DNA from: Spiroplasma platyhelix PALS-1
GTDB lineage: Bacteria; Bacillota_I; Bacilli_A; Mycoplasmatales; VBWQ01
Length of the DNA: 64,000 bases
Reading direction: 5' to 3'
Assembly (NCBI RefSeq): GCF_021496725.1
Contig: NZ_CP051215.1
Span: 558,001 to 622,000 of the forward strand
In this document: piece after piece, positions 2,359 through 24,924 of the stretch
Numbering within the stretch: the stretch's first letter is position 1
Layout of the letters: each line of letters begins with the position of its first letter
Notes under the pieces: model-generated
Database searches by the model: none
Seen by the model: only the letters and a program-made list of their open reading frames with translations
What the model was told of the DNA's origin: nothing
Program-made: the position numbers and the translations under genes

Positions 2359-4587
2359 TTACATGATTATTCTTGTTATCTCAATGATATCAGGCACTTT
2401 TTTTAAAGAAGACATAATTTGATTCAAACGTTCAATGCTTGGAACTTTAATAATTAGTTTTAATGTTCCTTGATGATTAATTAATTGATTGTTGGCATCA
2501 ATATTTTGAATTGGTGTTTTTAAGTGATTTAAAAGATTGATGATGTCTGCTAGCAATGCTGGACGATCAAGATAGTAAATTTTAACGGCTGAGTTATAAA
2601 GTTTATTTTCTGTTGCTGTTACATTTCAAACTGTTTCTAAAGTTCTTTCTTTTCTTTGCTCGTTGACAACATTAGGACAATCAATGCGATGAACTCTAAT
2701 TCCTTGCCCTTTGCTAATGTAACCAATAATTGGTTCATCAGGAATTGGCAAACAACAACGTGCTAATTGTGTTTTAATTGATGGTGAATTTTCAGCAATC
2801 GCATCATTTGAAACATGAGCATGTGCTAAAGAATGTTTTTTATTTGGCTTTAAAGATTTGAATTTTGGTGAATCACTAAATAAAATTGAACTAACAGCAT
2901 CTTCAATTGAATAAGTTCCATTTGCAATATCTAAGCAAAAATCATCATATGTGCTGTATTTTAAGAACTTCAAGCGTTGTAAGATGACAGCAGTGCTAGC
3001 AATTCTTCAACGTAATTTATTATCTTGAATATACTTATCAATTTTTTCTTTTGTTATTTGAATTTTCTTTTCGTTCTCTGAAGTTTTTGTTTTTGTTTCA
3101 GGAGTTTCATTTTGTTTGTTTAAATATTTTTTAATTTTGTGGCGAGCAAAATTTGTCTTAGCAATTGTCAACCAATCATAATTTGGTTTGACAGTTTTGG
3201 CAGTTTTGATTTCAACGACATCACCAGTTTTTAAAACAGTATTCAAAGCAGAATAAGTTCCGTTAATTCTTGCTCCCATTGCTGTTTCACCAATCTCAGT
3301 GTGAACTTTATAAGCAAAATCTAGCACTGTTGCTCCTAATGGCAGTGTTAGCACCTTACCGTTTGGAGTAAGAACATAAATCAACTCACTAAATAAATCT
3401 TGCTTAATCTCAGCTTCTAAATTACTATTTTTTTCATCATCATTAAAATTGTTGCTGCTATTCAAATCTAAAATTGTTTGAAAAATATTTAGTTTTTCAT
3501 CAATCTCTTCTTGTTTCTTTTTTGCGCTTACTTCTTCACCATCTTTATAGCGTCAATGTGCAGCAGCTCCAACTTCAGCATATATTTCCATTTCTTCCGT
3601 ACGGATTTGCAATTCATAAATTTCATTTTTGAAAACAATTGAAGTATGCAACGATTGATACATATTATTTTTTGGTGTCGCAATATAGTCTTTAAATCGT
3701 CCTGGTAGTGGAGTGAATCTTTGATGAATGTAACCTAAGATAGCGTAACAATCATCAACTGATTGACTAATGATTCTAATTGCTAAGATATCATGAATGT
3801 CTTCTAAATCCTTCCCAAAATAGTACATTTTGCGATAAATCGAAAATAAATTCTTACTACGACCATAAATACGGAATTTTAAATTTTCATGCTTAACTAA
3901 TGTTTTACTGATTTCTTTAATTGTGTTGTTAACTAAATTTTCTCTTTTGTCTTGATCTTTTTTGATAATCATACTAATTTTTTGATACTCAACTGGATAG
4001 AGCACAGAAAAAGAACGATCTTCTAACTCTGATTGCAATTCTCGCATCCCCAAACGATGAGCAATTGAAGCATAAACTTCTAATGTTTCTTTGGCGATAA
4101 TTCTTTGCTTTTCAGGTTGCAAGAATTCAATTGTTCTGATGTTGTGCAAACGATCAGCCATCTTAATGATAATAACTCGAATATCATGAGCTAAACTAAG
4201 ATACAATTTTCTTAAGTAGTCTGATTTAATTTCTTCACGATTTTCTTTTGCAAAATGACTAACTTTTGTTACTGCAAGAACCAACCCAGCAATCTCTTCA
4301 TCAAATTCTTTTGTTAGTTCTTCATAAGTAGTTGGTGTGTCTTCTAAGATATCATGCAAAAGTCCTGCTTGAATTGTTGCAGGATCTAAATGTCATAAAG
4401 TTAAGTTGTATGCAGTTGATAGCAAGTGATACAAATAAGGATCACCATTCTTACGAAGTTGACCTTCATGTTTAGTTTTTGCATATTGATAAGCTTTTTC
4501 AATTTTATTTAAAAGTATTTCACTGCCAATGTAAGTTTTTGCTTCAGCTAGTACTTCATTAAAATCTTTACAAGTAATTTTAATCAT
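2359..4587 (-). CDS. relA: Bifunctional (p)ppGpp synthetase/hydrolase RelA/SpoT (Rsh)
   Basis: Long RSH enzyme of 742 residues that makes and degrades (p)ppGpp in the stringent response. The frame is continuous once TGA is read as Trp. Order of domains: N-terminal HD hydrolase (YLYHLLS, LLHDILEDT near residues 51-84, then KMADRLHNIRT); synthetase domain (GRSKNLFSIYRK, GRFKDYIATPK, YQSLHT, YELQIRTEEM); TGS domain (VYVLTPNGK-type stretch after residue 370); a region with RCCLPIPDEPIIGYI and HRIDCPN; and a C-terminal ACT domain. Hydrolase HD residues and synthetase core are both retained, so it is probably bifunctional. The start chosen (4587) lies 4 bp after the apt stop; an in-frame codon at 4602 would overlap apt. 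Expected to act in the cytoplasm and associate with stalled ribosomes. Confidence 0.95.
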
Positions 4588-4591
4588 AATT

Positions 4592-5113
4592 TTAAATCTC
4601 AATTAAATTTAAATAAGGAACATCATTAAAGTTTTGATGATCTTTAAATTCTGACAGCGATATTAGTGACGCAATTCCAGCAACTTGTGCTTTAGCACAT
4701 TGAACCAATTCAATGCAAGCATGAATTGTACCTGCTGTAGCAATTAAATCATCAATAATAAGAACTCGATCTGTTGGAACAAGAGCATCTTGATGCATCT
4801 CAAGTACTGCTGTGCCATATTCTAATTTGTACTCAACTTGAAAAGTTTTAAAAGGTAACTTCCCTGCTTTTCTTGCTGGTATGAACTTAACATCTAAATG
4901 AAAAGCTAACGCAGAACCTAACATAAATCCGCGTGATTCAGGTGCTAAAATTGCTGTAACTTGCTGCTTCTTAGCAAACTCGGCAAAAGTTTCTATCAGA
5001 TAATGAAATGCTTCTGGGTCACTTAAAACTGGTGTGATATCTTTAAATTGAATTCCTGGTTTAGGAAAATCTGGGATATTACGAATCATTGCTTTGATAC
5101 TATCTAAATTCAT
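4592..5113 (-). CDS. apt: Adenine phosphoribosyltransferase
   Basis: Purine salvage enzyme converting adenine plus PRPP to AMP; 173 residues, the normal family length. Characteristic N-terminus IRNIPDFPKPGIQFKDITPV, mid-region ESRGFMLGSALAF and the PRPP-binding loop RVLIIDDLIATAGT (about residues 119-132, acidic pair followed by TAGT). It lies directly upstream of relA (4 bp gap) and 43 bp downstream of secDF, the apt-relA adjacency found in Bacillus and many Mollicutes. As Mollicutes lack de novo purine synthesis, salvage of this kind is expected. No irregularity seen. Confidence 0.97.
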   Translation of the reverse strand: MNLDSIKAMIRNIPDFPKPGIQFKDITPVLSDPEAFHYLIETFAEFAKKQQVTAILAPESRGFMLGSALAFHLDVKFIPARKAGKLPFKTFQVEYKLEYGTAVLEMHQDALVPTDRVLIIDDLIATAGTIHACIELVQCAKAQVAGIASLISLSEFKDHQNFNDVPYLNLIEI

Positions 5114-5156
5114 TCTTTTTTCATCCTTCCTTTTTGAATCAATTCACTAATAGGAA

Positions 5157-8120
5157 CTAATCGTTAATTCCTTCAATGATATATTCATCTGGACCAACAA
5201 AATGTTTTTTAATTTTTTCGGCACGTTTTTGATAACGTTTAATTCTTCTTTTTTCAAAGAAAGTTCACAATCAAGGAGCAACAAAATGAGTTGCAAGAAA
5301 AGTTACAATTGTTCCAAGAATCAGCGCTAAACTAACTGATCAAAAACTTGGAAGGAAACATAAAACAACCAAGGCTGTTACAATTATAATACTATTCACT
5401 GCTAATGTTCTTGATAATGATTTTTTAACTCCATCATTACTAATCGCAATAATTTCAGCTTTTTCTAACTTATCTCGCTTTTCATGATTATTTAATTTAA
5501 TTTCTTTAATGTTGTCAAAAATAACAACACTATTAATTAGCACTAAAATCACTAAGGCCAGAATCACGCCAATTGTCATAGTTGAGATTGTAATTTGCAA
5601 TAAAGCAAGTAAAGCTAATGTTAAACTAACAGCAAACACAATCGCAGCAATCAACGGAATTGTAAAAGTCATTTGGAATCTAACAATCACATAAAGGAAA
5701 ATTGTAATTAAAGAAATTGCAATAACAATCAACATATCTTTAAATAATTGATTTCCTGAAAGTCCATTAATATTTGAAGAAAATCATGATAGTGACGGAA
5801 CTTGAAATTCTAAAAACTCACGAAACTCAAGTGCTGCAGAATCTTTGACATTAGTTTGAACAATGATTCTAATCACATTTTTACTTGCTCCAAGTGAATC
5901 AAGAATTAATGAAGCATAAACTTTTTCATATGATTTATTAGCATCTTCTAAAGCTTGAACAACTTCACTTTTCTTCTTATCAGCTTGTTGTCACAAATTA
6001 AAGTTAGGATCACTAGGAGTACCTTCTGCTGCTGTTTCACCAGTAAAATCAATTCTACTATCAAATCCAGCTCCAAAATTTGAACCCGTTGCTAAGTATA
6101 CAACACCAGATGAAAGTAAAATTACTCCAAACCCAGCCATAATTCATTTTGTTGTTTTGTATCAGAAATTTCATTGACTAATATGTCAAAAATTAGGTTT
6201 TTTGTCTAACTTTATTTTTTGAACAAAAGTTTGTTTGATTACAGCTAACTTAACCTTAATCTTCTTAGTCTTACTTGTTTTCTTTTGAGCAACAAGATTT
6301 TGTTCAGGCATTACTTCAAGGTCTGCCATTTGCACTTGAACACTACTTCTAGTCTTATCTTGAGTTAAAGATAATAATTCCGGTTTGCTTTCAAAAGTAT
6401 TATTTTTCAACATTAAGTAAATAATTAATCTTAAAAATAAAATTCCTAAAAGCATAACACCAAAAGTTGAAATTGAAGTCATGATGGCAAATCCTCTAAT
6501 TGAACGTGAACCAAATCAAAAGATTGTTAGACTAACAATTAAAACAATAACACTACAATCAAATGCAGAAACTAATGATTTTTTATTAGCTGATTTAAAT
6601 GCATCAAACACAGTCTTACCTGTTTTATATTCTTTTTGAATTGCATTGAATAATCCAACAATAGTATCTAACAATAATGCAAACCCAATAATTAAAGCAA
6701 TTCCTGTCTCTGGAGCCACAACATTATTTAAGAAGCTAAAGGCAACTAAAGTTGCAACTAAAAATAAGATAATGATGAATACTGCACTCAGACCAAGTAA
6801 ACGATAATTAAAAATCATGGCAATAGCTAAAAAGATCAATGCAACTAGTAAGCCAATCATCGCTACTTTTAAAGATTGTGCTCCTAAAGTCGGATCAATA
6901 TTTAAAATTGCTTCAACAGTAAAATTATTTTTTTGCAATCCAGCATTAAGAACATTAACAATTTGTTGAACTTTTTCTTTATTAAAAGTTTCATCGTTAA
7001 TAGTAATTTGAGTATTACTGCTAATACCTGCAGTTCCGATATAATATGGTGCATATTTATAGTTGATAATTGATGTCTCTAAAACGTTTGAAATTTCAGG
7101 CAAAATAATTAAATCTTTGATGTGAGGTAATCAGGCATTCATTGGTGAACTTTTATCTTTAGTTGGATCAAAAGGGTTAGCTGGATCAAAAACACTTGCC
7201 TTATCATTAGTATCAACAGACAAAGGAAAAATACTATCTACATTATCATTGTACTTTCAATTAATCATGTAAACACCATTTCTTGATTGATTCAAGAGAT
7301 TAATTAGTTCTCGATTTGATGATTTAACAGCAGCATACATTTTTTTACCAGAATCATCATCTAGACCTGCTGTATTATTTGCTAATAAAGCTTTCAAACC
7401 TAGTTGCTTTGCTGAATCAGTTTCTTTATCTATCACATCAATTAATTCTTGCAAACCAGTTCAAGTATTACGAATATAATTTAACAGTCCCCCAATATCA
7501 GAATAAAAATAAATTGCTTCATTTGTTTCTTGCATAATTTTTTGGATAGTAGTTATTAGTTCTGAACTAGTATCAAAAATTACTTCTGGTTGACCAGAAT
7601 TAAAATTAGTAGAATGATAAATACTACTAAAAGCTTCATTTGTAGTTAGTCTTTCTTCTTTAGCTGTTCAGTTTTTATCATCACTAAAATTATTTGCTAA
7701 CAAATCATGACCTTGCTCATCTAATAAATAAACATAGCCACGACGAGCAATATTATTAACAAAAATTGATCAATCCACACCAGCAGACTTACTAATTGAA
7801 ACATTATAATAGTTACCTGTTCGAGTACTTTTTTCAATATTGATATTACTTGTTCCTAAAGGATCAACACGATTTTCTAATAAATCAACAACATTGTGAG
7901 TTTTAGAATTCTCTTCATAAACACCTTCATACTTAACCTGCGCTTGATAGCCCCCAGCAAACTCAATACTTAAATTGCTATTGCTATCTAAATAATTAAT
8001 ACTAAAAACTGCACTAATGATAATCGTTGCAGCTAAGATAAATAAGGTAGTCACTCTAGTAAAAAATGATAAGTTTTTTGCTTTTTTCTTGTTTTTTATA
8101 GTTGATGATGATTTTTTCAT
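5157..8120 (-). CDS. secDF: SecDF protein-export membrane protein (fused SecD-SecF)
   Basis: Accessory Sec subunit that uses the ion gradient to assist preprotein export. A single frame of 987 residues spans the SecD and SecF halves when TGA is read as Trp; the stop is TAG at 5157. The N-terminus has a basic stretch and one membrane segment (about residues 22-44), then a large extracytoplasmic part with LSIEFAGGYQ (SecD D1 motif). A block of five or so hydrophobic helices follows with ALIIGFALLLDTIVGLFNAIQ, corresponding to the SecD transmembrane domain, then a linker with charged KKTSKTKK residues, then the SecF half with another extracytoplasmic loop and helices containing ALVILVLINSVVIFDNI. 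The ancestral ruvA/ruvB-...-secDF-...-apt-relA order is preserved. The gene is intact. Confidence 0.92.
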
Positions 8121-12776: not shown

Positions 12777-14120
12777 ATGGCAAAAAAAAGAAAAAAACAC
12801 ATTAAAAAATCAAGAAAAAAAGAGATCAAAAAATCAAAAAGAAAATTAATCAAAAAACCAATCATTAAGAAACTACATCTTAAAAGAAAAAACATCAATA
12901 TTAACGCAAATATCTTATTAAACAAATGAATTTGAATCTCATTAGGAGCAGCCTTTCTTGTTTCAGTAGCAATGTTTATTACTTTTTTCATGCTGAAAAA
13001 TAAAGGTCAAATCACTTTAACATACACTGTACTAACAATAATTGCTTTAATTCCTTTTGTTATTTTTATTCTTTACTGAGGAGCAATTGCCATTGCATTT
13101 CGTTTAATTTTTAAAGCAATCACAAAAGATATTGAAAGAGATGCTGTCTTTCCTATTGTTACTTCTTTTTTAATTCAAGAACCAGAAATCTCAGTTAAAA
13201 AATATATGGAAAAAGGAAATCTTAATAAAATTAAACGCTATAAAACAGCAGCTTCAAAATTACTACTTTACACAATTATTATTGTTGTTTTGTTTATTGT
13301 TTTCAACTTTATTTTTGTTGGATTAACACAATTAAATGTTATCGCAGTTTCAACATCATGATTATATTTATTTGGTTTACTATCAAATGTTATCTCGCTA
13401 GTTTTATCTGCTGTCTTTGGATTTATGGTAAGCAACATCATCAATGCTCCAGCAAAATTTGAAGAAAAATATCAAGGAATCAAGACTAAACTTTACAACT
13501 TTAAAGTTTTCTTAAATGTCAACGAAATCAAAAAAGTTGATTCGCAAAAATTAAAATATCGCTTTATTGACTTTCTACCACTTTACTTCTATCAGTCACT
13601 TTTAATTTCTGAAATCAAAGAAGAACAATACATTCAAGAATTAGAAAATTGAAAATACTATCTTACTTTATCTTCTTACTTGAATCAATTTAGTTGACTA
13701 CTATTTCTTCACTATGCAATTAATAAAGATGAGCAACTAAAATTAATTAAAAAATCAAAATATATGACTAAACTAGCAAATCAAATCCAAAAAGTTCATA
13801 AAATTTTATTTCACACTACTAATGAATATATCTATTTCAACAATGACTATAATGCAAAAGAACTAGAAACAGAATACAACCAACTAATCAACATTGTCAT
13901 TAGATATCAAAATCGTTTTGCTCTACGAATGATTACAGCCTCATTACAAAAAAATGGTCTTAAAATTGCTGAAACTATTAGTGAAAATAAAGATGAGAAC
14001 ATCATCGACGAACGAGATGTTGACATCAATTTCTTTCAATTAAATTATTTAGAATATTTATTCTCAATTATTTTCACTACTGATAAAGATGCTAAAAGTA
14101 AAGAACACTTCAAATACTAA
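12777..14120 (+). CDS. Membrane protein with very basic N-terminus, function unknown
   Basis: A 447-residue protein I do not recognise. Residues 1-40 are extremely Lys/Arg rich (AKKRKKHIKKSRKKE and onward, about half basic). Four hydrophobic helices follow: roughly 56-78 (ISLGAAFLVSVAMFITFFM), 90-112, 165-186 (LLLYTIIIVVLFIVFNFIF) and 196-222. The remainder is a cytoplasmic-type region rich in Lys, Glu, Tyr and Asn. Six or more TGA codons fall in Trp-like positions, so it is a single frame. It is the only plus-strand gene in the first 15 kb, inserted between coaBC and rpmA (divergent and convergent respectively), where Bacillus has no equivalent. No enzymatic motif is visible. Confidence 0.85.
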
Positions 14121-14131
14121 AACTAATCAAC

Positions 14132-14166
14132 AAAAAAAGTTCTATTTTTTAAATAGAACTTTTTTT
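14132..14166. terminator. Bidirectional rho-independent terminator
   Basis: Perfect hairpin with arms AAAAAAAGTTCTATTT and AAATAGAACTTTTTTT, sitting between the convergent 12777-14120 gene and rpmA. A-tract on one side and T-tract on the other allow it to serve both strands. Confidence 0.85.
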
Positions 14167-14185
14167 ACTATTAATTATTAAGCAA

Positions 14186-14473
14186 TTAATTTTTTGCTTC
14201 TAGAATTTCAACTTTAGTTTTATTCTTAGCAAATTTAACATACTTAACAATTCCAGTTTTTAAAGCAAATAAAGTATCATCACCACCACGACCAACATTA
14301 GTTCCAGGATGAACTTTTGTTCCTCGTTGACGATAAATGATTGAACCTTCATGAATTAATTGTCCATCACTTGCTTTTGCTCCTAAACGTTTAGAATGAG
14401 AGTCTCTACCATTACGAGTTGACCCAACTCCTTTTTTAGAAGCAAAGAATTGTAAATTTAATTGAAAACGCAT
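14186..14473 (-). CDS. rpmA: 50S ribosomal protein L27 with Prp-cleaved leader
   Basis: Large-subunit protein near the peptidyl-transferase centre; 95 residues. The start at 14473 is set by a strong AAGGAGGT site 7 nt upstream, located inside the end of prp. The N-terminus [20 protein letters not shown] carries the Firmicutes-type extension QFF-ASKKG, which the Prp protease removes after the FF pair before L27 can function. The body continues [17 protein letters not shown] and [22 protein letters not shown]. It is the last gene of the rplU-prp-rpmA operon. The longer upstream open frame (to 14518) has no ribosome site and would bury the cleavage motif. Confidence 0.97.
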
Positions 14474-14474
14474 T

Positions 14475-14789
14475 TTAGTAAACCTCCTTGATTGAAATAT
14501 TTTTAACATATTGATCACTAATAGTTTTTAACTGTCATAACATTGTTTTTAAAATCATTTGGTTATCATTTGTTGGTTTTAGAACAGTAATAACTATTCT
14601 ACCATCTGATTGAGCAATTTTAACTTCTGCTTGACTAACTAAGTTATCAAGCGCATTTAAACTGCCAAACACAACTGCAGAGATTCCTGCACAAACAATA
14701 TCTTTTCCAACTTGATCAAAATTACTATGACCTTCAACTTCAGCTCTAACAATATTGTTTGTTTGATAATAAAAACTAACTTTTACCAT
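14475..14789 (-). CDS. prp: Ribosomal-processing cysteine protease Prp (YsxB family)
   Basis: Cysteine protease that trims the N-terminal extension of L27; 104 residues, the usual size. The catalytic pair is visible in [20 protein letters not shown]: His about residue 21 and Cys about residue 34, spaced as in the family. The last 20 residues ([20 protein letters not shown]) are read through a TGA Trp codon, so the gene ends at 14475, one base before the rpmA start; the ribosome site of rpmA is inside it, implying coupling. It lies between rplU and rpmA as in Bacillus (ysxB). The matching cleavage site in the neighbouring L27 makes the assignment firm. Confidence 0.94.
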
Positions 14790-14796
14790 AATTAAA

Positions 14797-15267
14797 TTAT
14801 TTCTTTGTTGTAGTTTCTACTATTTTTTCTTCAAGATTGTTTACTGTTGTTTTTTCATTGGTTGATGAAGTAGGCTTTGCTACCTTCTCTATTTCTTTAT
14901 TTACTTCTGTTGTTGTTGGTTTTTCATCTTTCTTAATTGCTGCTTCTTTTTGTGCTTTATCTTTAGCACTTAAAAAGATATCAGTAATTTTAACCTTTGT
15001 ATAAGGTTGACGATGACCATACTTAGATTTAGAGTTTTTCTTTGGTCTATATTTGAAAACAATAACTTTCTTAGCCTTGTCTTGCTTAATAATTGTTGCA
15101 TGAACTTCAGCACCTTTAATTAAAGGTTGACCCACTGTTCCATCAATCATTAATACTTGATCAAAGATAACATTGCCATTAGCTTCACCAGCTAACTTTT
15201 CAACAAAGTATTCTTTACCAACTTCAACATTAATTTGTTTACCGCCTGTTGCAATAATTGCAAACAT
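14797..15267 (-). CDS. rplU: 50S ribosomal protein L21 with C-terminal extension
   Basis: Large-subunit protein binding 23S rRNA. The N-terminal ~100 residues match the family: FAIIATGGKQINVEVGKEYF, GQPLIKGAEVHATIIKQDKA, VFKYRPKKNSKSKYGHRQPY. About 55 further residues form a charged low-complexity tail rich in Lys, Glu and Thr (TTTEVNKEIEKVAKPTSST...), so the total of 156 is half again the usual ~103. GGAGGTG is upstream of two adjacent ATGs (15270 and 15267); the second gives better spacing and a standard N-terminus. First gene of the rplU-prp-rpmA operon behind a structured leader. Confidence 0.95.
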   Translation of the reverse strand: MFAIIATGGKQINVEVGKEYFVEKLAGEANGNVIFDQVLMIDGTVGQPLIKGAEVHATIIKQDKAKKVIVFKYRPKKNSKSKYGHRQPYTKVKITDIFLSAKDKAQKEAAIKKDEKPTTTEVNKEIEKVAKPTSSTNEKTTVNNLEEKIVETTTKK

Positions 15268-15270
15268 CAT

Positions 15271-15358
15271 AACACCTCCAGTTTAGACTCGCCTCGTAGG
15301 TGGATTTATCATCACTTTCGTACCCATAAGAAGTGCGGTTGAAACTGCATAAACAGTC
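15271..15358 (-). promoter_or_regulatory. Ribosomal protein L21 leader RNA
   Basis: Untranslated leader between the promoter and rplU. Read on the minus strand it contains CCGCACTTCTTATGGGTACG followed by AAAGTGATGA and a CCACCTACGAGGCG element, with complementary segments (CGCACTT pairs with AAAGTG). This layout fits the Firmicutes L21 leader family thought to mediate autoregulation of rplU-ysxB-rpmA. Family assignment is from memory of the consensus; a covariance search would settle it. Confidence 0.65.
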
Positions 15359-15364
15359 TTAGTA

Positions 15365-15393
15365 ATTATAAAGATAAAGATATTAAAAATCAA
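15365..15393 (-). promoter_or_regulatory. Sigma-70-type promoter of rplU operon
   Basis: On the minus strand TTGATT (15388-15393) and TATAAT (15365-15370) are separated by exactly 17 bp. Transcription would start near 15358, just before the structured L21 leader. Confidence 0.85.
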
Positions 15394-15409
15394 GTATTGT
15401 TTCAGCAAT

Positions 15410-15490
15410 GATAGAAAGAATTTTTTGGTAGATTGTGTGGTAAAAAATATTATTCAGTTTGGATAACTGAATTTAACGAGCTTTAAATTC
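15410..15490 (+). repeat. Island-flanking repeat copy 1 (gene-end remnant)
   Basis: This stretch aligns with 22920-23003 over about 80 bp: shared blocks include ATTGTGTGGT, AAAAATATTATTCA and AATTTAACGA-CTTTAAATT. Translated, both end in the same peptide family: here KEFFGRLCGKKYYSVW then ITEFNEL and a stop. Most differences between copies are silent or conservative, so they look like 3' ends of two homologous genes rather than a recent duplication. It lies directly upstream of the rplU promoter and directly before the TraG relic. Confidence 0.6.
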
Positions 15491-16876
15491 TTTTAAGTAT
15501 TATTATATTTATTATTCTAATTTATTTAGCTTTAACTTTGATTAGTTATTTTGCCGTTGCTTTGATTTATTCTTTTTTTGTTTTTGAAGACATACAAAAT
15601 TTTGATTAGCTTTAAAAGAAAACAATGTGGTTAGTTACACTTTTGCTTTAAGCACTATTTTATTGATTAGATTATGTCTTACTTGAATTTGATTTAAATA
15701 TAAAAATCCACAAGCAAATAAAAAGATGAGTTAGTACTATTAAATAAAAATATTGGCCTAGTAAAAAACAAATTAAATCAACATACTTTGTTAATTGGTG
15801 CTACAGGTAGTGGCAAGACAACAACAGCCTTATTAATCGTAAAACAATTAATTGAACGTTTAAATCAAACAGTTATTATTATTGATGGTAAGGGTGATCA
15901 TGACTTAATCGATAAAATAAAACTGATTGATTCAAATGCTTTTATTTGAACGATTAGAGGAATTAAAGAATACAATCCTCTTGCTACAGATAATAGCGTT
16001 ATTTTAGTTGATAAGATAATGTCTTTATTTAATTTTTCTGAAGCTCATTATGAAGCTATTGCACACAATTATTTATTACTAATTGTTAAGAGTTTACAAA
16101 ATGCTAAAATTCCAACAACGTTTCATAACATTGTTAAATATTTTTCTTTAAGTTCTTTAAAAAAAATAATCAAAAAAGATAGTATTGAATATGATCATTA
16201 TTTAAGCTTCACTAATAATGAAAAAGATATTAATGGTTTAATGCATCGACTTAGCGTGTATATGCAAAACTTAGGAACAAGTGTAGGAAAAAATAACTCA
16301 TTAAGTTCTTTAGTTAATAATCATAAAATAATCTTATTTAGTTTGAATTCCTTAAATTATCCACAACTAGCAAGTAATGTAGGAAAACTTATCGTACAAG
16401 ATTTAAAAGAATTTGCTAGTCTTAAACCTAAAGAGCAACGAATCAACGTAATTCTTGATGAATTTAATGTTTTTGCTTCTGACACTATCATCAATTTAAT
16501 TAATAAAACTCGAAGCTTTAACTATCAAGTCTTCTTGTGTTTTCAAACTTTAAATGATCTAAAAATCAATCGCACTAATTTAACTGATACCATCTTTGGT
16601 AACTGTGGCAACATTATTGCCCACAATCTAAAAGACCCTAATTCTGCTGAATATATTGCTAAAGTTTTTGGTACTCAAACAACAGATAAGCAAACAAAGC
16701 AAACTGATAAAACAGAAAAAACAGGTAAGGGATCAACCAGGGAAGTTGAAGAATACATAGTTCATCCTAACGAACTAAAGAACTTAAAAATTGGCGAGGC
16801 GTATTGTAAAATACTACTACCAAGTTCTAAACAACTGATCTATAAGATAATTATTAAAGAAGATAAAAAGGCCTAG
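15487..16876 (+). pseudogene. TraG/VirD4-type conjugative coupling ATPase, frameshifted
   Basis: Relic of the ATPase that couples DNA substrates to a type IV secretion channel. Three frames in succession encode it. 15487-15600: hydrophobic segment (IIIFIILIYLALTLISYFAV). 15600-15722: second membrane segment ending FKYKNPQANKK. 15722-16876: the ATPase, with Walker A LIGATGSGKTTTALL (about 15790), Walker B NVILDEFNVFAS, the motif FQTLNDL and the region FGNCGNIIAHNLKDP typical of TraM-recognition domains. Both breaks need a -1 shift at A-rich runs (CAAAATTTT and AAATAAAAAG). No ATG precedes Walker A in the ATPase frame and no start codon is visible for the membrane part, so it is probably inactive. 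It marks a former conjugative element. Confidence 0.85.
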
Positions 16877-16890
16877 TAGTAGGCCTTTTT
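16865..16890. terminator. Bidirectional terminator between TraG relic and 16873-17406 gene
   Basis: Hairpin with arms AAAAAGGCCTA and TAGGCCTTTTT and a 4-nt loop. The stop codons of both converging genes lie inside it. Confidence 0.85.
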
Positions 16891-17406
16891 ATACTTTCCT
16901 ATATCATTCAAATTTAAAATATTATTTGTCTGTTTTATTAACTTTTTAATTAAACTATTTGTATTCGTATTTTGTTTTTTATGCTTAATATTTTTTCTAT
17001 TCTCTTTTTCATAATAGTCATAAAGTTCTACAAAACAAAGATTTTTAACTTCTTCATTAACACTTAATCCTATAAACAAAACATAAATATCAAATATTGG
17101 TTTATAATATGGTTTTTGTTCTAAAAACTTACTCATTTCCTTAAAATCTGATGGAAATCCTATGTTACTTATTTTGTTATTTGCTTCAATTTGATTAAGT
17201 TTATCATTGTTTACTTCGTCAATAATGTCTAATATTTTTTCTAATGAATCAAACTGATTAATTATATATTTATTTTCAACTTGATTTTTATCCTTTAATT
17301 TTAAATCAAGATAGTTAATAACTAACTTATACAATAAATCAGTTTGAACATTATTAATTATCTTTTTCTTCTGTTCCTCTTGCTTCCTTGTAAAAATTAG
17401 TTTCAT
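16873..17406 (-). CDS. Hypothetical charged protein in island
   Basis: 177-residue protein, unrecognised. Lys, Asn, Glu and Ile make up most of it, with no signal peptide or membrane segment. Predicted mostly helical, with a Lys/Glu-rich start (FTRKQEEQKKKIINNVQ) and a basic C-terminal tail (NIKHKKQNTNTNSLIKKL). Its start overlaps the end of the preceding gene by 53 bp in another frame, so either the two are translationally coupled or a frameshift has split one longer protein of about 325 residues. Its stop codon lies in the terminator shared with the TraG relic. No function can be assigned. Confidence 0.55.
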   Translation of the reverse strand: MKLIFTRKQEEQKKKIINNVQTDLLYKLVINYLDLKLKDKNQVENKYIINQFDSLEKILDIIDEVNNDKLNQIEANNKISNIGFPSDFKEMSKFLEQKPYYKPIFDIYVLFIGLSVNEEVKNLCFVELYDYYEKENRKNIKHKKQNTNTNSLIKKLIKQTNNILNLNDIGKYKKAYY

Positions 17407-17803
17407 CTGTCTCGTTCTCGATTCTTTTAATTTCTCGCTCTTCTTCTGTATCTTCTATTTTATCATTATTTGTTGTTTCAATTTTATCAATTTTTACAAA
17501 TTTGTCATCTATATGCAATTTTGTAACTTGATCTACTGTTTCAACTTCAACAACAACTTTTCTTGTGGTTGAATCATTTTGATACTCTGCTTTTTTTCTT
17601 TTATATGCAGCTGAATTTTTTTTAATTAAGTCGTCTCCAAAAACTTCACTTAAAAAATTCATAGATCTATCATCAAACTCTTTTGCTGACTGAGAATCAT
17701 GTTTATTATTTTCCTCATTAATTTTATACTCAACTCTATTTTTGAGTCACTTATCAAATCACTTTTTCGTTTCTTCAATTTTTTTCTTGCATCATTTTTT
17801 CAC
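17354..17803 (-). CDS. Hypothetical highly charged protein in island
   Basis: 149 residues from a GTG start at 17803, which has GGGGA 8 nt upstream; TGA codons in the first 25 residues (KKWCKKK, KKWFDKW) are Trp. The N-terminal 30 residues are basic, and the C-terminal 50 strongly acidic (DKIEDTEEEREIKRIENETD). An ATG at 17662 (NFLSEVFGDDL) is an alternative start but has no better ribosome site. No membrane segment and no recognised domain. It overlaps the following gene by 53 bp. It sits between the TraG relic and the DUF2971 gene and may be part of the same mobile cargo. Function unknown. Confidence 0.5.
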
Positions 17804-18073
17804 GTTTTATGTCCCCTATTCTACCTCCTAATTGAGATTTTTAATTTCTGGAACATTTCTAATCTTTAATTAATTTTCAAAACTTCGCCCTAATTTCATC
17901 ATATTTTTTTAATTTGCTTTAATGTGTTGCAAAACTAATTAAAAATAAAACTTATTCCACAATTATTGTAGCAAATAAAAAACTATTTACAATTAAAAAA
18001 GTATTAAGCATAAAAAATTATATGTTAAAAGATTAACGGAGTATAAACACAAATTAATAAAAAATTACAAGTA

Positions 18074-19162
18074 TTAATCAATTCAAAAATCTTCTTCAAA
18101 AGGCATATTAGTAAATAATATTTCATAAGTATGACGATCAGGGCTTGCATATGAAAACTTTACATCTTCGTTAGGAAATAGACTAGTAATTTTTTTAATA
18201 TTACTTGGGCTACAATTATTACCAAAATAAATTCCTGAAACCTTTAACCCTAAATCTTTTGTACTTAAAAACTTATCAGATGATTCATTTTCAGGCATAT
18301 AAAATATTCTTCACTCTTTCTCATAATTTCAATGTTTTGATTTTGCACAAAGGGGAAGAAAATCAAGTTTATCATTTGAAATAATTTTAGGCCTTTCTTC
18401 TAAGTAGTGGACTTTAAAAAAAGGAGATTCCTCATTAGTCACATATTCTATACATATTCCTTGACCTAACTTGGCATAATGAGCCCACATAGAAGCAGAG
18501 TCATTAATTTCTGAAAAACAAGCAATATGAATTACTTCTCTTAAAACTCTAGGTGGAAAAAGTAATGGTTTGGTAATTTTACGATAGTCTATAGGTGGAT
18601 ATAACTCAAACATATCATTGAGTTTCTTTGCATTATTAAAATAAATTTGATTTTTTGTTAAATTTTCCAAAGTATATTTATTTATAGGACAATATTTATA
18701 AACCTTTTTAGGTATTTTTGTTCTATCATTTAAAGCTTCCGTATACTCCTTTTTTATTTTTGTAATATCTTTTGCATGAGCTTTACTTAATTTATCTAAT
18801 AGTAAAATTTTATGCTCAACACATACATTTATATTTTTTTCTTCGGAAGAGGTTGTTCGAAATCAAATTTCTTCTGTTTTTTTACTTAAACATTCATCTG
18901 TACATGATTTCATCTTAAGTACAAAACATTCCGGACATTTTGAATGATTGCCCCATCTAGGTTCAGATTTAGAAATATGATCATTTTCTCAATTTGCCCA
19001 TTCTCTTTTATTAACCATATACTCTTTTCATTTTGGATCAACAATATCTAAGTTTCCTAAAATTACAAAACTATTAAATTCACTATTTTCTTCTCAAGAT
19101 AAATTTAAACCATTTAATTCTTTTTCAATTATTTCATTAATTTTTGTTTTGTCTACAATCAT
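18074..19162 (-). CDS. DUF2971 protein with Cys-rich N-terminal region
   Basis: 362-residue protein. From about residue 153 it matches DUF2971 as I know it: KVYKYCPINKYTLENLTKNQ, IYFNNAKKLNDMFE, ACFSEINDSASMWAHYAKLG, GICIEY and WNYEKEWRIFYM appear in family order. DUF2971 proteins are common in bacterial accessory regions; their biochemical role is not established. Residues 1-150 are an extra region with CPECF, CTDEC and a later CVEH, which could bind zinc. The start at 19162 has AAGGAG 9 nt upstream. It uses three TGG alongside about eight TGA Trp codons, more TGG than most neighbours, which fits recent acquisition. The Cys-rich gene 19182-19529 lies 19 bp upstream, so they are probably co-transcribed. 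Confidence 0.8.
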
Positions 19163-19181
19163 TTTACTACTCCTTAATTTA

Positions 19182-19529
19182 TTAATTAAATTTGTATTCT
19201 CCACAAATACTACATGGTAATCCGCCATAATATTTATCATCACAAGTTTTGCAAGTACAAGTAACACAGTGTAAACACATATTTTTAATTTCTACCATTC
19301 CATTACTATATAAACCATATAAAAAATCATAGTGTTCTCAATGTTGTTCACAAATAGAGCCTTTATCTTCTAATATTTTTGCAAAGCTGAGAGGAAACAT
19401 ACACTCAAATTCTTCTCCAGTTTCTTCATTAATTATTTTATTTTTACAAATATGATTTTTTATTTTGGTTTTATAATTTTCATTAACAATAAGAAAACCT
19501 TTATCTTTTATTTTTAAAAATTTTGTCAT
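19182..19529 (-). CDS. Small Cys-rich (zinc-ribbon-like) protein
   Basis: 115 residues, start at 19529 with GAGG 9 nt upstream. The C-terminal third is packed with cysteines: MCLHCVTCTCKTCDDKYY, then PCSICGEY, eight in about 35 residues, in CxxC spacing typical of zinc ribbons. Two more Cys and a His lie in CEQHWEHYDF and near ICKNK and ECMF. A TGA at 19338 is Trp. It has no membrane segment. It precedes the DUF2971 gene by 19 bp in the same direction, and that protein also has a Cys-rich N-terminus, so a joint metal-dependent or nucleic-acid-binding role is possible. Not assigned to any family. Confidence 0.65.
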
Positions 19530-19801
19530 TTTAAATCCTCATTTTAAATAATTTTTTACTAGAAGCATGGTTTAGACGCCAGTTATTAAAATAAACAATA
19601 ATTTAGTTATTTCAAATGATATGATCATTTTCATTAGTTCAAATGTCATTAATATTTTCTTTTGATATTTTTACGCTTTAGTTATTAAATATTATTATTT
19701 TCTGCTTGTGAGCCTTTATTTAAATCCATTACTCCGCTATTCAATAATAAAATTATATTTTTTATAAAGAATAAAAAACAAGTAAATATCATCTTTATTT
19801 T
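19530..19801. other. 272-bp region without intact gene, decayed coding debris
   Basis: No complete reading frame. On the minus strand a short frame reads KISKENINDIWTNENDHII and then, after a stop, VYFNNWRLNHAS; another encodes MDLNKGSQAENNNI. These look like decayed coding sequence but are too short to assign. No promoter or hairpin is evident. Confidence 0.4.
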
Positions 19802-20097
19802 ACACTTTTGGGTTTTATATTTCTTTTTAATCCAACAATACCCTTTTTCTTATGATGATGTCTTAAATAAATAGATACTGCAATAATGATTATTGAACCT
19901 AATGCTGCTGAAGATGATTAGAATTAGGGTCAGGTGCTTTATTTAAATCTTCTCATGAAATAATATTTATATAATCAATTCTACTTTCAGCACTAGTTAC
20001 AATTATTTGGGAAAATCAATAATCTAAAAGATAAGGACTGCTTTTAATTTCTTCTCTTATTTTACTATATATTAATAATTTTAATAATTTGGGAAAT
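19802..20097 (-). pseudogene. Frameshifted remnant of a membrane-anchored protein C-terminus
   Basis: Two minus-strand frames join to form the end of a surface-type protein. The first (about 19907-20097) encodes LELFPKLLKLLIYSKIREE, then SSPYLLDYWFSQI, then RIDYINIISWEDLNKAPDPN. One base out of frame it continues SSSAALGSIIIIAVSIYLRH then HHKKKG and a stop at 19802. That is a proline/asparagine/serine spacer, a single membrane helix and a basic tail, the layout of cell-surface or phage adsorption proteins. A plectrovirus-derived origin is possible in a Spiroplasma-like host, but this is a guess. No start is present. Confidence 0.5.
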
Positions 20098-20101
20098 AAT
20101 T

Positions 20102-21652
20102 CTAATTTATTTCATTTACTGATGAGTCAATATAATTATTTATTTCTTTTTCTTCATTGATATCTTTTTCTTTCAATGTATTTTTAACACTAAAATAATT
20201 TTCAATATTAGATTTCAAAGTTTTCTGCAAACTATCTAAATTAGATAGTACTGGTTTATTAGAAGGATCAGTATTACTGTTATTAATAAATAAATTCATT
20301 CTTGTCATATATTGTTTATTATTTTTATTTAAATTCAATTTATATTCTAAATTTGGTTTAAATTGAAAAGAATTAAAATCATTTAATAAACATTCATTAC
20401 TTAATAATGAGTTAATTTGATTTCAAAAACTATTTCATTCATTATTCTTCTTTGTTTTTGATGAACTAATATCACTATCATACACTGTATATATTTTTTT
20501 ATTAAATAGTCTTAATAAAGTCAGTAAAAATGGAATTTCAAATTTTCCAAAACTTTTTAGAATAAATACATTAGTTTCTAAAAATAAAGAATTTAAAATG
20601 TATTCATCATTAAGTCCCTCGCAAATTATTATTTTGTTATAAAATAATGAATTCATAAATTCATTTTTTATAGGTCAATGATGAAATCATTTGCTTATCC
20701 CTTGCTCATAAATATTCATTAGTTGATTTAAGCTGACAGAACGTTCTTTTATTTTATTTTCTGTTGAAAAATTGAATTTTGTAGTAATCTCTATCATTTT
20801 ATTGAAAATAGGATTTGATACATTTAAAAATAACTTTTCATTATACTGTCAAAATTCATGAAAGGCTTTCATTAAAACTATCTCACTTAAATTATTTATA
20901 AAATTATTAACAAAAACAGCAGAATGACTTATGCAAATTATTTTTATAATTTTATTATCAATAGACTTAAGCGAATTTGCAATTTTTATTATTAATTCTG
21001 GATGACACAAATTTTCTGGTTCATCAATTATAAGATATAAATAATTTCCTTTAGTTTCTGAACAAAATTCCAATATTTTATTAATAAGTTTTAGAATTGT
21101 ATAGAAATATTGACCAGTTCCAGCATCTTCTGATATTGAATTAAATATACTACCCATATTTATTTTTTTATGATAATTTAATTCAAAAATATTATTGTTA
21201 ACAAATTTAGGTCTATTAACATTAATTCATTTTAAATCTGGATCTGTTTCATCAACTTGTAACTTTTTATCAATAAAATTGTTATCCATTCATTCTTGAA
21301 CTTTAGTTAAATTTAATTCACTTTTTTCACAAAATTCTTTAAAGCTTTGATTTTCTTTAAAATATTTAGATAAATCATCTTCATTAATTTTATATACAAA
21401 ATTAGTTAATTCATTTAATAATAAACCAATTTTTTGTAAATTATTATCTTTTGCATTTTTTAATTCTTTATCTATATTCAAGTCCGCTTTAATAAAATAA
21501 GATTTTATACCTTTAGATTCTAATTTTTCTGTTATTTTTTGAGTAAAGGTAGTTTTTCCTACACCATTTTTACCAATAATAACTAATCTATCAAAACTAA
21601 CATCAGAAATTTTATCAATTAAATCATTTTCATCTATTTTAAAACTATCCAC
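20102..21652 (-). CDS. OLD-family-like ATPase with Toprim nuclease domain
   Basis: A 516-residue protein in one frame after reading TGA as Trp. N-terminal ATPase: Walker A VIIGKNGVGKTTFTQKI (about residues 24-40), a signature-like stretch GTGQYFYTILKLINKI, Walker B YLIIDEPENLCHPELI and a switch motif ICISHSAVF. C-terminal Toprim: IIICEGLNDEYIL (Glu) and TVYDSDISSS (Asp-x-Asp), then FKPNLEY. ABC-ATPase plus Toprim is the OLD nuclease layout, used in phage-defence systems such as Gabija GajA. No UvrD-like partner lies next to it. The GTG start at 21652 has GGTGAT upstream; another GTG is at 21661. It is transcribed away from a terminator whose arm overlaps its likely promoter. Intact, unlike its neighbours. 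Confidence 0.8.
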
Positions 21653-21668
21653 AATAATCACCAAAATT

Positions 21669-21695
21669 ATTATACCCGATAAAATGGAAAAACAA
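21669..21695 (-). promoter_or_regulatory. Probable promoter of OLD-like gene
   Basis: On the minus strand TATAAT at 21669-21674 is preceded, with a short 15-bp spacer, by TTGTTT (21690-21695), which is also the distal arm of the upstream gene's terminator. The start codon follows within about 20 bp, so the 5' leader would be very short. Confidence 0.45.
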
Positions 21696-21727
21696 CAGAA
21701 ACCCTTCCAATAGGATTTCTGTTGTTT
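21690..21727 (-). terminator. Rho-independent terminator of 21835-22836 gene
   Basis: 12-bp stem AAACAACAGAAA / TTTCTGTTGTTT with a 14-nt loop, followed on the minus strand by TTTTT. It separates the membrane protein gene upstream from the OLD-like gene. Confidence 0.8.
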
Positions 21728-21834
21728 GTACAAATTAATTATATCATTGAAAATGAAATCATACTAAAATATTTATTTTTTAATTTACTTAATGATTTCT
21801 TGTTTAATTAAGTCAATTTAAATTGCGTTAATTT

Positions 21835-22836
21835 TTAAACATTCATATTAGTTTCTGCTAGACGATTTTTTGCGGTACTAGTATGCTCATATTTTCCAAT
21901 TGTTACCGTTCCATCAACTGATCATAACCCTGCCATTGTTTTAGTAGTAATATAAATAACCATACCAACATATGTGATTGTGACTACTAGATTTAATAAA
22001 GCAAACATCATTCTAAATAATCCACCTCTTTCACCAGCTCTTAAGAAATCAGAGAAAGCGGCGATTAAACGAAAGAATGAAAAAATAAGAATAAATACTA
22101 ATTCGATTGTTAGAATGCTCATTCAGATTGTTGAGATTAATTTAAATAATTTTGAATTACTATTGTTATCAAAATCATTTTGTATTTTGTAGGGTAGAAA
22201 TAAAGTTCATGTCATTAACCCCAAAGCAAATACACTGACGCTAATTGTTAAAACTATAATTGAAATTACGCCCATTGTAGAACTTGCATCAAAAATATAA
22301 TTTTTATTGGCAATTGCATTTGTTCCAACAAGTAATGGTAAGAAATAAGAAAGAGCAAAGATGGGAAAACCAACCATTGTACAAATTGCCATAGTTTTTG
22401 ATAGAAAGTAACGTGGTTTAATAGTTGAAGTTGTTGCAACATTCGGGAATGCTGTCACCAAAAATGGTGTAAAAAAGCCACCAACTCCTAAACTTAATGC
22501 TGAAATAATATAACGATTAGCACATAACTCTTCATCTGAAGATCTTTTTGCTAAGCGAATGATAATTAATGCCGTATAAATGCTTCTTCAAACAAAATAA
22601 ATAATCAGTGCTAACATCAGAGACACAATTGCTTTATTTGTTAAATCATCACTAGCTAAAGCATTATATATATCGTTCATATAAGATATATATACTATTA
22701 ATCCAATTACTGAAAAAACAGTTCCAAAAATTTGAGCCATTACCAATCAATTTCTGGGAACAGCGCTATAAGGATTATAGCCATTAGCGTTATTTGGGTT
22801 ATTATAATGGTTATAATCATTGTTATTGTATGCCAT
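21835..22836 (-). CDS. Polytopic membrane protein with Asn/Tyr-rich N-terminus
   Basis: 333 residues, start 22836 with AAAGGAGA 7 nt upstream. Residues 1-30 are an Asn/Tyr repeat-like tail (NNNDYNHYNNPNNANGYN), followed by about eight hydrophobic segments: 33-55, 68-90, 105-120, 138-158, 180-202, 230-250, 262-282 and a final one ending TYVGMVIYITTKTMAG. The C-terminus is soluble and short. Eight or so Trp positions are mostly TGA, as in host genes. I recognise no transporter family. It lies just inside the right-hand flanking repeat, so it may be island cargo or a host gene next to the boundary. Confidence 0.75.
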
Positions 22837-23307
22837 TTTTTTCTCCTTTTATTATTTTAAAATAATAAATTTTATAATATTGAATTGTACTTTTTTTAAT
22901 AAAAAAAGCAAATAATTTAGATAGATTGAAAGAATTATTTGCTATATTGTGTGGTGAAAAATATTATTCAACTTACATTTCTTAATTTAACGATCTTTAA
23001 ATTATAAGGAGAAGATTAAAAAAAATAGCAACTAGAATGATCCAATCTACGGATAAAATAAACTGCTAATTAAAATAAAATTGTCCAGTTTATTAAACTA
23101 AACACAACAAATTAGAACCCTTTCAGGACTCTTTTTTTATAAATCACAACAATTTAATTCTTCATTTAAATAACTTAATAATAAAAATCTAACATTTATC
23201 TGATAATGTCTATAAAATTATTTTATAAAAGTTTTTTTAATAGAACAAAATTATCTATCCAATTGTTATCTTTGTGATAGTCTTAATAAAAAGAAACGAG
23301 GCTTTGG
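22837..23307. other. 471-bp intergenic region with repeat copy 2
   Basis: Divergent gap between the 21835-22836 membrane protein and the EamA-like transporter. It contains the second flanking repeat (22920-23003), an AAGGAGA sequence directly after it that looks like a ribosome site for a lost gene, and AT-rich sequence with no other frame or clear hairpin. Confidence 0.6.
22920..23003 (+). repeat. Island-flanking repeat copy 2 (gene-end remnant)
   Basis: Same orientation as copy 1 (15410-15490). In-frame translation reads RLKELFAILCGEKYYSTYIS, a stop, then FNDL and a second stop; copy 1 has ITEFNEL at that place, so one codon has become TAA here. The frame extends upstream only to about 22890. 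It is followed by AAGGAGA, as if another gene once started here. Confidence 0.6.
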
Positions 23308-24444
23308 ATGCTCAAAAAAAATACCAATTTTTTAATTGCTGGTGGATTTGGAATAAGTGCAGCAATGTTCTATTCACTAACTCCATTATTTGTGTTTTTC
23401 TTTGCAAGCAGTTCATTGCCGATAACTTATGCAATATTTTTGGCAACAATTCAAGAATTCATGTCTTTCATTCTTGTCGGAATTGTCATCGGATTTTATC
23501 ACTGAAAAGAAATTCAAACGCCAAAAACCTATTGAATGAACTATACACTTTTAATTCCTTTTGGCTATATGTTTGGTGTTGGAATCTACAGTAACTTTCT
23601 TGATTTAATAAATAAATTAAAAAATGGCCGTGTCTGAATTATGGCAGCAGTAGGCGTACTTGCTGGACCAATCTCAATGTCACTATTGATGATCGCAGCT
23701 TTATATTTAAATGATGGAACTTTAAATAATGTTATTTTAAACACTGCTCCAATTTATTGTATGATTTTAAGTCGCTTTGTTTTAAAAGACAAAATTAACA
23801 ATGTTGGGCTGATTGGTATCATCATCACTAGTTTACTTACTTTTGGAATGTTGTTTAATTTTTTCTTTATCAAAGACACAATTGATTGAAAAGCAATTCT
23901 TGGAGTTGGCCTTTCTTTCATTGCTGCTCTAGCATATGCAATTGAAGGAACTGTTAGCGATTATTTTCTTCACAACAACAAACTTCATCTAACAAATTAT
24001 GAAATCGTAACAGTTAAATCGTTTGTTAGCTTTTGAATTATGCTAATTATTGCTCTACCAGTTGCTTCAGCAATTGATTCTCAACCTTTATATAATGGCT
24101 GAACAATTTTCAAAACTAGTTTTGATGCCTACGGCTGACAAGCACTTCTAGTATATGCATCTGGAATCACTATGGGTACTGGCCGCTTACTTTACTTTGA
24201 AACTGTTAAACTAGCATCAGGAACATATGCTCTAGCAACCCAACTAACAATGTTAATCTGAACACCAGTCTTTCAAATTCTTGGAAACTTATGAATCCCA
24301 GAAATTCATACTGATAGATTGCAATGATTCTACTGACTGTGAGCAGGACTAATCTTGCTGAGTTTATTTATTGTAACCTTCAACGAAGACATTTATAGTT
24401 GGTACCTAAAGCATGTTAAATCAAAGTCAAAAAAACATAAGTAA
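23308..24444 (+). CDS. EamA/DMT-superfamily-like transporter
   Basis: Integral membrane protein of 378 residues with about ten hydrophobic helices in two halves of five, the drug/metabolite transporter layout. The first half contains GGFGISAAMFYSLTPLFVFF and, after a stretch with conserved Pro, TLNNVILNTAPIYCMILSRF followed by VLKDKINNVGLIGIIITSLL, which resembles the EamA motif around helix 4. The second half begins WKAILGVGLSFIAALAYAIE. Substrate cannot be deduced. The start is ATG 23308, preceded by a weak CGAGG. Ends at a bidirectional hairpin. Many in-frame TGA Trp codons. Confidence 0.8.
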
Positions 24445-24445
24445 C

Positions 24446-24481
24446 AAAAAAAGATTAGCGTATCTGTGCTAATCTTTTTTT
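24446..24481. terminator. Bidirectional terminator
   Basis: Arms AAAAAAAGATTAGC and GCTAATCTTTTTTT, 8-nt loop, between the convergent transporter gene and the 24469-24924 membrane protein, whose stop codon lies inside it. Confidence 0.85.
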
Positions 24482-24924
24482 ATCTTTTTCTTACCACGAA
24501 CAACAATCAACAATACCATACTTGCTAAAAATATCCCAACAACAGCACAAGCAAATGCAATGATAAAGCGAATTAAAAAGTAATGATAGTCCAACCAGTA
24601 ACTAGTTAGATACAATCCGATAATAAAGCAAGCAAAAGGAATAATATATGTAAATTGATCTAATTGATGTAACTTAAGTTTATAAGTAACAAAAGTTGTG
24701 CTAAGAGCAAACAACAATAAAGCAAGTGATAAAACAACCATCAATCATAATGGTAGTTTAAAAGTAAAATTAAAGTCTTTTGATGTCAAGAAAAAAAGTA
24801 GTAAGCCTGGAACCAACACTTGACCAATTAAGTAACAAAAACTAACAAAAAAATTAGTTCTCTTTAAAGGTTGCGATTCAAAATTACTATTTTCTGTCAC
24901 TAGTTCAACATTATTTTCATTCAT
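24469..24924 (-). CDS. Small polytopic membrane protein, unknown
   Basis: 151 residues with about four hydrophobic helices (29-48, 61-80, 90-110, 117-141) and a basic C-terminal tail RGKKKIKKD. The start at 24924 has AAGGTG about 10 nt upstream. One TGA is Trp. The N-terminal 20 residues are polar (NENNVELVTENSNFESQ). No family recognised. It stands alone between a terminator and a tRNA-Gly gene. Confidence 0.75.

What the first reader, a model, noticed from the sequence alone, without database searches (positions are those of the whole stretch)
18074..19529. Two-gene Cys-rich operon: DUF2971 with a putative zinc module plus a zinc-ribbon-like partner
The DUF2971 protein carries a ~150-residue N-terminal region with CPEC/CTDEC cysteines that is not part of the usual domain, and the gene 19 bp upstream encodes a protein with eight Cys in its last 35 residues. 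Both sit in a mobile island beside an OLD-type nuclease. DUF2971 has no established biochemistry but recurs in accessory loci, so this pair could be an undescribed defence or addiction module.
Basis: partly seen in the sequence, partly recalled or inferred. Interest (0 to 1): 0.62.

Follow-up and report, generated by a model that had tools for sequence, protein, structure and literature searches.

The report
Mollicute AbiGi-like DUF2971 gene pair
A small wall-less bacterium carries, in a decaying defence-gene hotspot, an intact protein of an uncharacterised candidate phage-defence family with an extra cysteine-bearing front end, next to a cysteine-rich partner found in no other genome searched; the known part looks distantly related to the classical phage-resistance protein AbiGi, which gives a function to test.

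Summary
The two genes are real under genetic code 4: P0002 (115 aa, 19182-19529, -) and P0001 (362 aa, 18074-19162, -), 19 bp apart, each with a Shine-Dalgarno. P0001 residues ~151-355 are an intact DUF2971 domain (all 17 strongly conserved positions kept) matching PADLOC's candidate defence family PDC-S31 (1e-35). Residues 1-150, with five Cys (CPEC, CTDEC, CVEH), match nothing. P0002 has ten Cys, seven (not eight) in its last 35 residues, and no relative in 298 order, 295 phylum or 9 family genomes, or in the plasmids, phages and viral contigs searched. Co-occurrence elsewhere therefore fails: the pair is a singleton, and no metal site could be modelled. Best reading: a stand-alone Abi-type effector with a lineage-specific, possibly zinc-binding sensor front end. 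Biochemistry unknown. New variant of a known candidate kind; moderate interest.

The parts
18074..19162 (-). P0001, DUF2971/PDC-S31 protein, 362 aa, code 4 (7 TGA = Trp)
   Evidence: Shine-Dalgarno AAGGAG
18098..18712 (-). DUF2971 (AbiGi-like) domain, residues 151-355; confident model, all 17 strongly conserved positions kept
18473..18490 (-). MWAHYA signature (residues 225-230)
18308..18331 (-). W-N-Y-E-K-E-W-R signature (residues 278-285), counterpart of the AbiGi E-x-E-W-R motif
18713..19162 (-). orphan N-terminal region, residues 1-150, no relatives found
18890..18937 (-). CPEC-x7-CTDEC cysteines (76, 79, 87, 91), putative metal ligands with C114/H117 at 18812-18823
   Evidence: sequence; metal binding inferred
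19182..19529 (-). P0002, orphan Cys-rich protein, 115 aa, 10 Cys
   Evidence: no relatives
19203..19277 (-). P0002 cysteine cluster, residues 85-109 (CLHCVTCTCKTC...CSIC)
20102..21733 (-). OLD-like AAA ATPase with TOPRIM-like C-terminus, 543 aa (context, not shown to be part of the system)
15788..16876 (+). degraded traG/virD4-type coupling-protein gene (context)
   Evidence: TraG-D_C 1.3e-15; 5' end in several frames
15271..24468 (.). variable hotspot between rplU and a conserved 151-aa membrane protein gene
   Evidence: 2.2 kb in L117 and 10 kb of unrelated genes in L118

Best explanation
P0001 is a mobile-element-borne immunity protein of the abortive-infection type. Its C-terminal DUF2971 domain is the effector, remotely homologous to AbiGi. 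Its N-terminal Cys-bearing region acts as a built-in, probably zinc-stabilised sensor or regulator of infection by phages or incoming plasmids. The co-transcribed Cys-rich P0002 is an accessory, either a second sensor or a regulator of P0001. Shown: intact domain, intact pair with ribosome-binding sites, hotspot location, family links. Inferred: metal binding, co-transcription and co-function of the two genes, defence activity. The chemistry of the effector is unknown; conserved H228, Y229, Y253, K274, E281, E283 and R285 are the candidate active-site residues.
For: PDC-S31 models match at 1.3e-35 to 2e-14. All 17 positions conserved at >=85% in 51 diverse DUF2971 proteins are kept although neighbouring genes are decaying. 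Profile-profile match of DUF2971 to AbiGi: score 29.5, E 0.0018, versus a maximum of 23.3 in 300 column-shuffled decoys; 248 of 250 natural ORFs scored below it, and the two above are presumed extra DUF2971 copies, not checked. Weak reciprocal Pfam hits: one DUF2971 protein to AbiGi 0.037, one AbiGi protein to DUF2971 0.0063. Same order of motifs. Hotspot in congeners with PHP-AAA, SIR2-like and SocA/Panacea genes. Immediate neighbours of DUF2971 genes in 80 scattered genomes include AriA, Old, GajA-like, NsnB, MADS2 and type I MTase proteins; a far-gene control gave fewer repeated families. DUF2971 is also fused to TPR or HTH N-termini and occurs as a prophage cargo gene near toxin-antitoxin genes, as sensor/effector defence proteins often do.
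Against: No co-occurrence of the pair anywhere searched. No structure match for the domain in PDB or BFVD. AbiGi E-values are only suggestive. Individually cloned lactococcal abiGi and abiGii were not toxic in E. coli (PMC3985639), and AbiGi is annotated as an antitoxin, so the domain need not be a toxic effector. The neighbour survey counts overlapping models and has only a rough control.
Confidence: 0.5

Rival explanations
1. Toxin-antitoxin (addiction) pair: P0001 is the toxin, and P0002, encoded first, is a Cys-rich antitoxin that masks it and may autoregulate the promoter.
For: Two-gene operon with the small gene first and 19 bp spacing; SocA/Panacea TA genes occupy the same hotspot in a congener.
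Against: DUF2971 genes elsewhere are mostly not preceded by a Cys-rich gene (4 of 80 loci have such an ORF upstream, at least some of them overlapping other ORFs). No TA family matches P0002. AbiGi-type proteins are annotated as antitoxin, not toxin.
Confidence: 0.15
2. Chance adjacency: an intact DUF2971 defence gene next to an unrelated orphan gene in a decaying island; P0002 has its own or no function.
For: P0002 has no relatives; the island is full of remnants (traG 5' end, a surface-protein-like remnant at 19800-20100).
Against: 19 bp spacing, separate Shine-Dalgarno sequences, both frames open, and Cys density far beyond chance in a Cys-poor genome.
Confidence: 0.2
3. A non-defence accessory enzyme or regulator, for instance metal- or redox-responsive, carried by an old conjugative element.
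For: DUF2971 has no established biochemistry; Cys motifs in both proteins.
Against: Genomic setting here and in distant relatives is defence and mobile-element cargo.
Confidence: 0.15

Closest known systems
DUF2971 (Pfam PF11185) / PADLOC PDC-S31 phage-defence candidate, single gene
   Same: Whole domain 151-355 with every strongly conserved position; mobile-island setting
   Different: Extra 150-residue N-terminus with five Cys; a Cys-rich gene directly upstream; the KYR arginine of the first motif is Cys158 and NDPFE reads NDMFE
AbiGi (PF10899), first gene of the lactococcal AbiG abortive infection system
   Same: Same order of motifs: aromatic first strand, CFSE/CFCD, H...Y..G, V-x-Y, K, E-x-E-W-R; profile match E 0.0018
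   Different: Below PF10899 detection; no AbiGii partner here; P0002 matches no AbiGii model in the family scans
OLD family (AAA ATPase plus TOPRIM nuclease)
   Same: Neighbour 20102-21733 matches PADLOC Old
   Different: Not shown to work with the pair; TOPRIM score slightly below cut-off
phrog_1762 (phage protein family of unknown function)
   Same: Aligned to residues 122-353 at 3.6e-33
   Different: No function known

Membership tests
DUF2971 (PF11185) / PDC-S31 | Pfam gathering score reached | tested here: met
   24.7 bits vs 22
DUF2971 (PF11185) / PDC-S31 | Conserved residues (ND, MWAHYA, G, Y, K, W-x-YE-x-E-x-R, G) | tested here: met
   17 of 17 positions; alignment A3
DUF2971 (PF11185) / PDC-S31 | Anti-phage activity | not testable with these tools
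   PADLOC lists it as a candidate; no paper in the library reports function
AbiGi (PF10899) | Direct match of P0001 to the Pfam model | tested here: not met
   no AbiGi row for P0001 at E<=10
AbiGi (PF10899) | Profile-level homology of the domain family | tested here: inconclusive
   E 0.0018, above all shuffled decoys, motifs in the same order, but hhalign probability only ~15%
AbiGi (PF10899) | AbiGii partner gene | tested here: not met
   P0002 matches no AbiGii or nucleotidyltransferase model
ADP-ribosyltransferase (DarT-like) | ART fold | tested here: not met
   No ART among the 50 listed fold matches of a confident domain model; sequence profile finds nothing in PDB
Toxin-antitoxin module | Toxicity of one gene relieved by the other | not testable with these tools
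   needs expression
Zinc ribbon / zinc finger | Recognised zinc-ribbon profile or modelled metal site | tested here: inconclusive
   Only chance-level Zn_ribbon_IS1595 (E 0.37); models too poor in these regions

The most novel reading that the evidence does not exclude
P0002 plus P0001 form a previously undescribed two-protein immunity system in mollicutes, in which two lineage-specific Cys/zinc modules sense infection and switch on a DUF2971 effector; DUF2971 and AbiGi together define one superfamily of abortive-infection domains with an undescribed fold.
Probability: 0.2. Interest if true: 0.65.

Novelty: new variant of a known kind. Interest (0 to 1): 0.4.

Why it matters
DUF2971 genes are widespread but without biochemistry. 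A link to AbiGi, a domain of an experimentally described phage-resistance system with no solved relative found here, would merge two unknown families into one testable superfamily and point at the residues to mutate. The mollicute version adds a naturally attached sensor-like region and a candidate partner. It also reveals a defence-gene hotspot beside rplU in this mollicute genus.

Tried and rejected
ADP-ribosyltransferase (DarT-like) reading, suggested by the LYKYR/LFHFT first strand: fold search found none; DarT itself was not found in 149 sampled genomes, so no profile comparison with it was possible. PD-(D/E)XK nuclease reading: tRNA-splicing and cap-snatching endonucleases appear only at E 0.8-5, not usable. 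Homology of P0002 to the P0001 N-terminus (C76/C79/C87 align with C85/C88/C96): 9-10% of shuffles score as high, not supported. Weak P0002 hit in G129 lies in a DNA methyltransferase, spurious; the G330 hit is 41 residues with two stops, 21.5 bits, not credited. No co-occurrence survey of P0002 was possible for lack of relatives. P0002 fold at pLDDT 33 is useless. PDB sequence searches gave nothing for P0001 or P0002. Terminator and promoter scans gave only chance-level matches.

Full report
CHECK OF THE OBSERVATION. The window lies in a 744,499-base single-contig genome. ORFs are long and coherent only if TGA is read as Trp, so the organism is a mollicute using code 4; its family is held with nine genomes, the other genus with genomes of 1.0-2.1 Mb, which suggests the Spiroplasma family (inference). 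Under code 4 the claimed operon is real: P0002, 115 aa, 19529-19182 (-), and P0001, 362 aa, 19162-18074 (-), 19 bp apart, each start preceded by a Shine-Dalgarno (AAGGAG, GAGGA). P0002 has ten Cys, seven in the last 35 residues, not eight; Cys is 0.7% of residues in long ORFs of the window, and simulations at that frequency never reached this density. P0001 has Cys 76, 79, 87, 91 and 114 with His 117 in its N-terminal part.

THE DOMAIN. P0001 reaches the Pfam DUF2971 cut-off and matches PADLOC's single-gene candidate PDC-S31 at 1.3e-35 and phrog_1762 at 3.6e-33. A pattern scan of 84,980 species genomes gave 258 relatives, the best 80 kept; all match P0001 only from residue ~101 or later, mostly 145-350. 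In an alignment with 51 of them, all 17 positions conserved at 85% or more are kept in P0001. AlphaFold2 gives an alpha/beta domain at 151-355 with pLDDT mostly above 90. Foldseek finds nothing significant in PDB or viral models, nor does a profile search of PDB sequences, so the fold is undescribed at this sensitivity.

LINK TO AbiGi. One DUF2971 protein hit the AbiGi model weakly (0.037). AbiGi proteins were collected, including the lactococcal abiGI beside abiGII, and aligned (A5). The order of motifs is the same: LFHFT/LYKYR, CFCD/CFSE, H...YG..GIG / HYA...G.C, V-x-Y, K, E-x-E-W-R. Profile-profile score is 29.5 (E 0.0018), against a maximum of 23.3 in 300 column-shuffled decoys; 248 of 250 natural ORFs scored below it. 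The two that scored higher (48.4 and 164.6), from loci L080 and L033, are presumably extra DUF2971 copies; this was not checked. One AbiGi protein hits DUF2971 at 0.0063. I read this as probable remote homology, not proof: hhalign's own probability is only ~15%. P0001 itself does not match PF10899 and is not filed as an AbiGi. In the literature, abiGi and abiGii cloned singly were not toxic in E. coli (PMC3985639).

THE ORPHAN PARTS. Neither residues 1-150 of P0001 nor P0002 has a credible relative in 298 genomes of the order, in the class (P0001, 395) or phylum (P0002, 295) samples, in all nine held genomes of the family, in plasmids, phages or viral contigs, nor is there a second copy of the N-terminus in the genome itself. 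The predicted co-occurrence test therefore fails by absence: the pair is a singleton in what can be searched. Metal binding could not be modelled. A weak similarity between the two orphan regions is not significant.

SETTING. The pair sits between rplU (14797-15270) and a conserved 151-aa membrane protein (24469-24924) followed by a transporter. In two congeners this interval is 2.2 kb (L117) and 10 kb (L118) with unrelated content; the latter encodes a PHP-like/AAA protein with PADLOC ATPase matches, a weakly SIR2-like protein and two SocA/Panacea-type antitoxin genes. Here it holds a traG/virD4 gene with a frame-broken 5' end, the pair, remnants and an OLD-like gene. So it is a variable hotspot with defence-type cargo, in which the P0001 domain has stayed intact. 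Immediate neighbours of the 80 distant DUF2971 genes include AriA, Old, GajA-like, NsnB, MADS2 and type I methyltransferase proteins. Far genes of the same loci match fewer models, with at most two members each (126 models for 123 proteins versus 365 for 148); overlapping models make this suggestive only. DUF2971 is also cargo of a tectivirus-like Vibrio phage genome beside PfiAT and ParD genes, and is fused to HTH or TPR N-termini elsewhere.

MECHANISM. Shown: intact domain, gene arrangement, hotspot. Inferred: the DUF2971 domain is the effector, the variable N-termini (TPR, HTH, here a Cys-bearing region) are sensors, and P0002 is an accessory. The chemistry is not known; H228, Y229, Y253, K274, E281, E283 and R285 are the residues to mutate. 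Confidence in a defence role with this layout is 0.5; in P0002 being a true partner, lower.

VERDICT. A real, intact DUF2971/PDC-S31 candidate defence gene with a new N-terminus and an orphan Cys-rich neighbour: a new variant of a known candidate kind.

Noticed in passing
window 15271-24468; L117 6383-8606; L118 6047-16043: The interval between rplU and a small membrane-protein gene is a variable hotspot in this mollicute genus, with defence- and TA-type cargo in one congener.
   Followed up: partly
L118:9669-12014 (-): 781-aa protein with a PHP-like start and a split AAA ATPase (matches GajA, Ppl and PtuA models), possibly a TrlF-like defence protein in a mollicute.
   Followed up: partly
L118:12718-13725 and 13943-14945 (-): Two tandem copies of a SocA/Panacea-type gene with a ~160-aa partner, a likely duplicated toxin-antitoxin pair whose partner has no clear family.
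   Followed up: partly
window 15500-16876 (+): traG/virD4-type coupling-protein gene with intact ATPase part but a 5' end scattered over several frames: relic of a conjugative element.
   Followed up: partly
window 19800-20100 (-): Remnant in shifted frames ending in ...SSSAALGSIIIIAVSIYLRHHHKKKGIVGLKRN, like the C-terminal anchor of a surface protein.
   Followed up: no
L132:2941-3762 and 4301-6759: AbiGi-family gene directly beside avs4 on an E. coli plasmid, without abiGii; several other plasmid AbiGi genes also stand alone.
   Followed up: no
L094:4114-6675 (+): 854-aa TPR-DUF2971 fusion in Thalassospira: an independent sensor-like fusion of the same domain.
   Followed up: no
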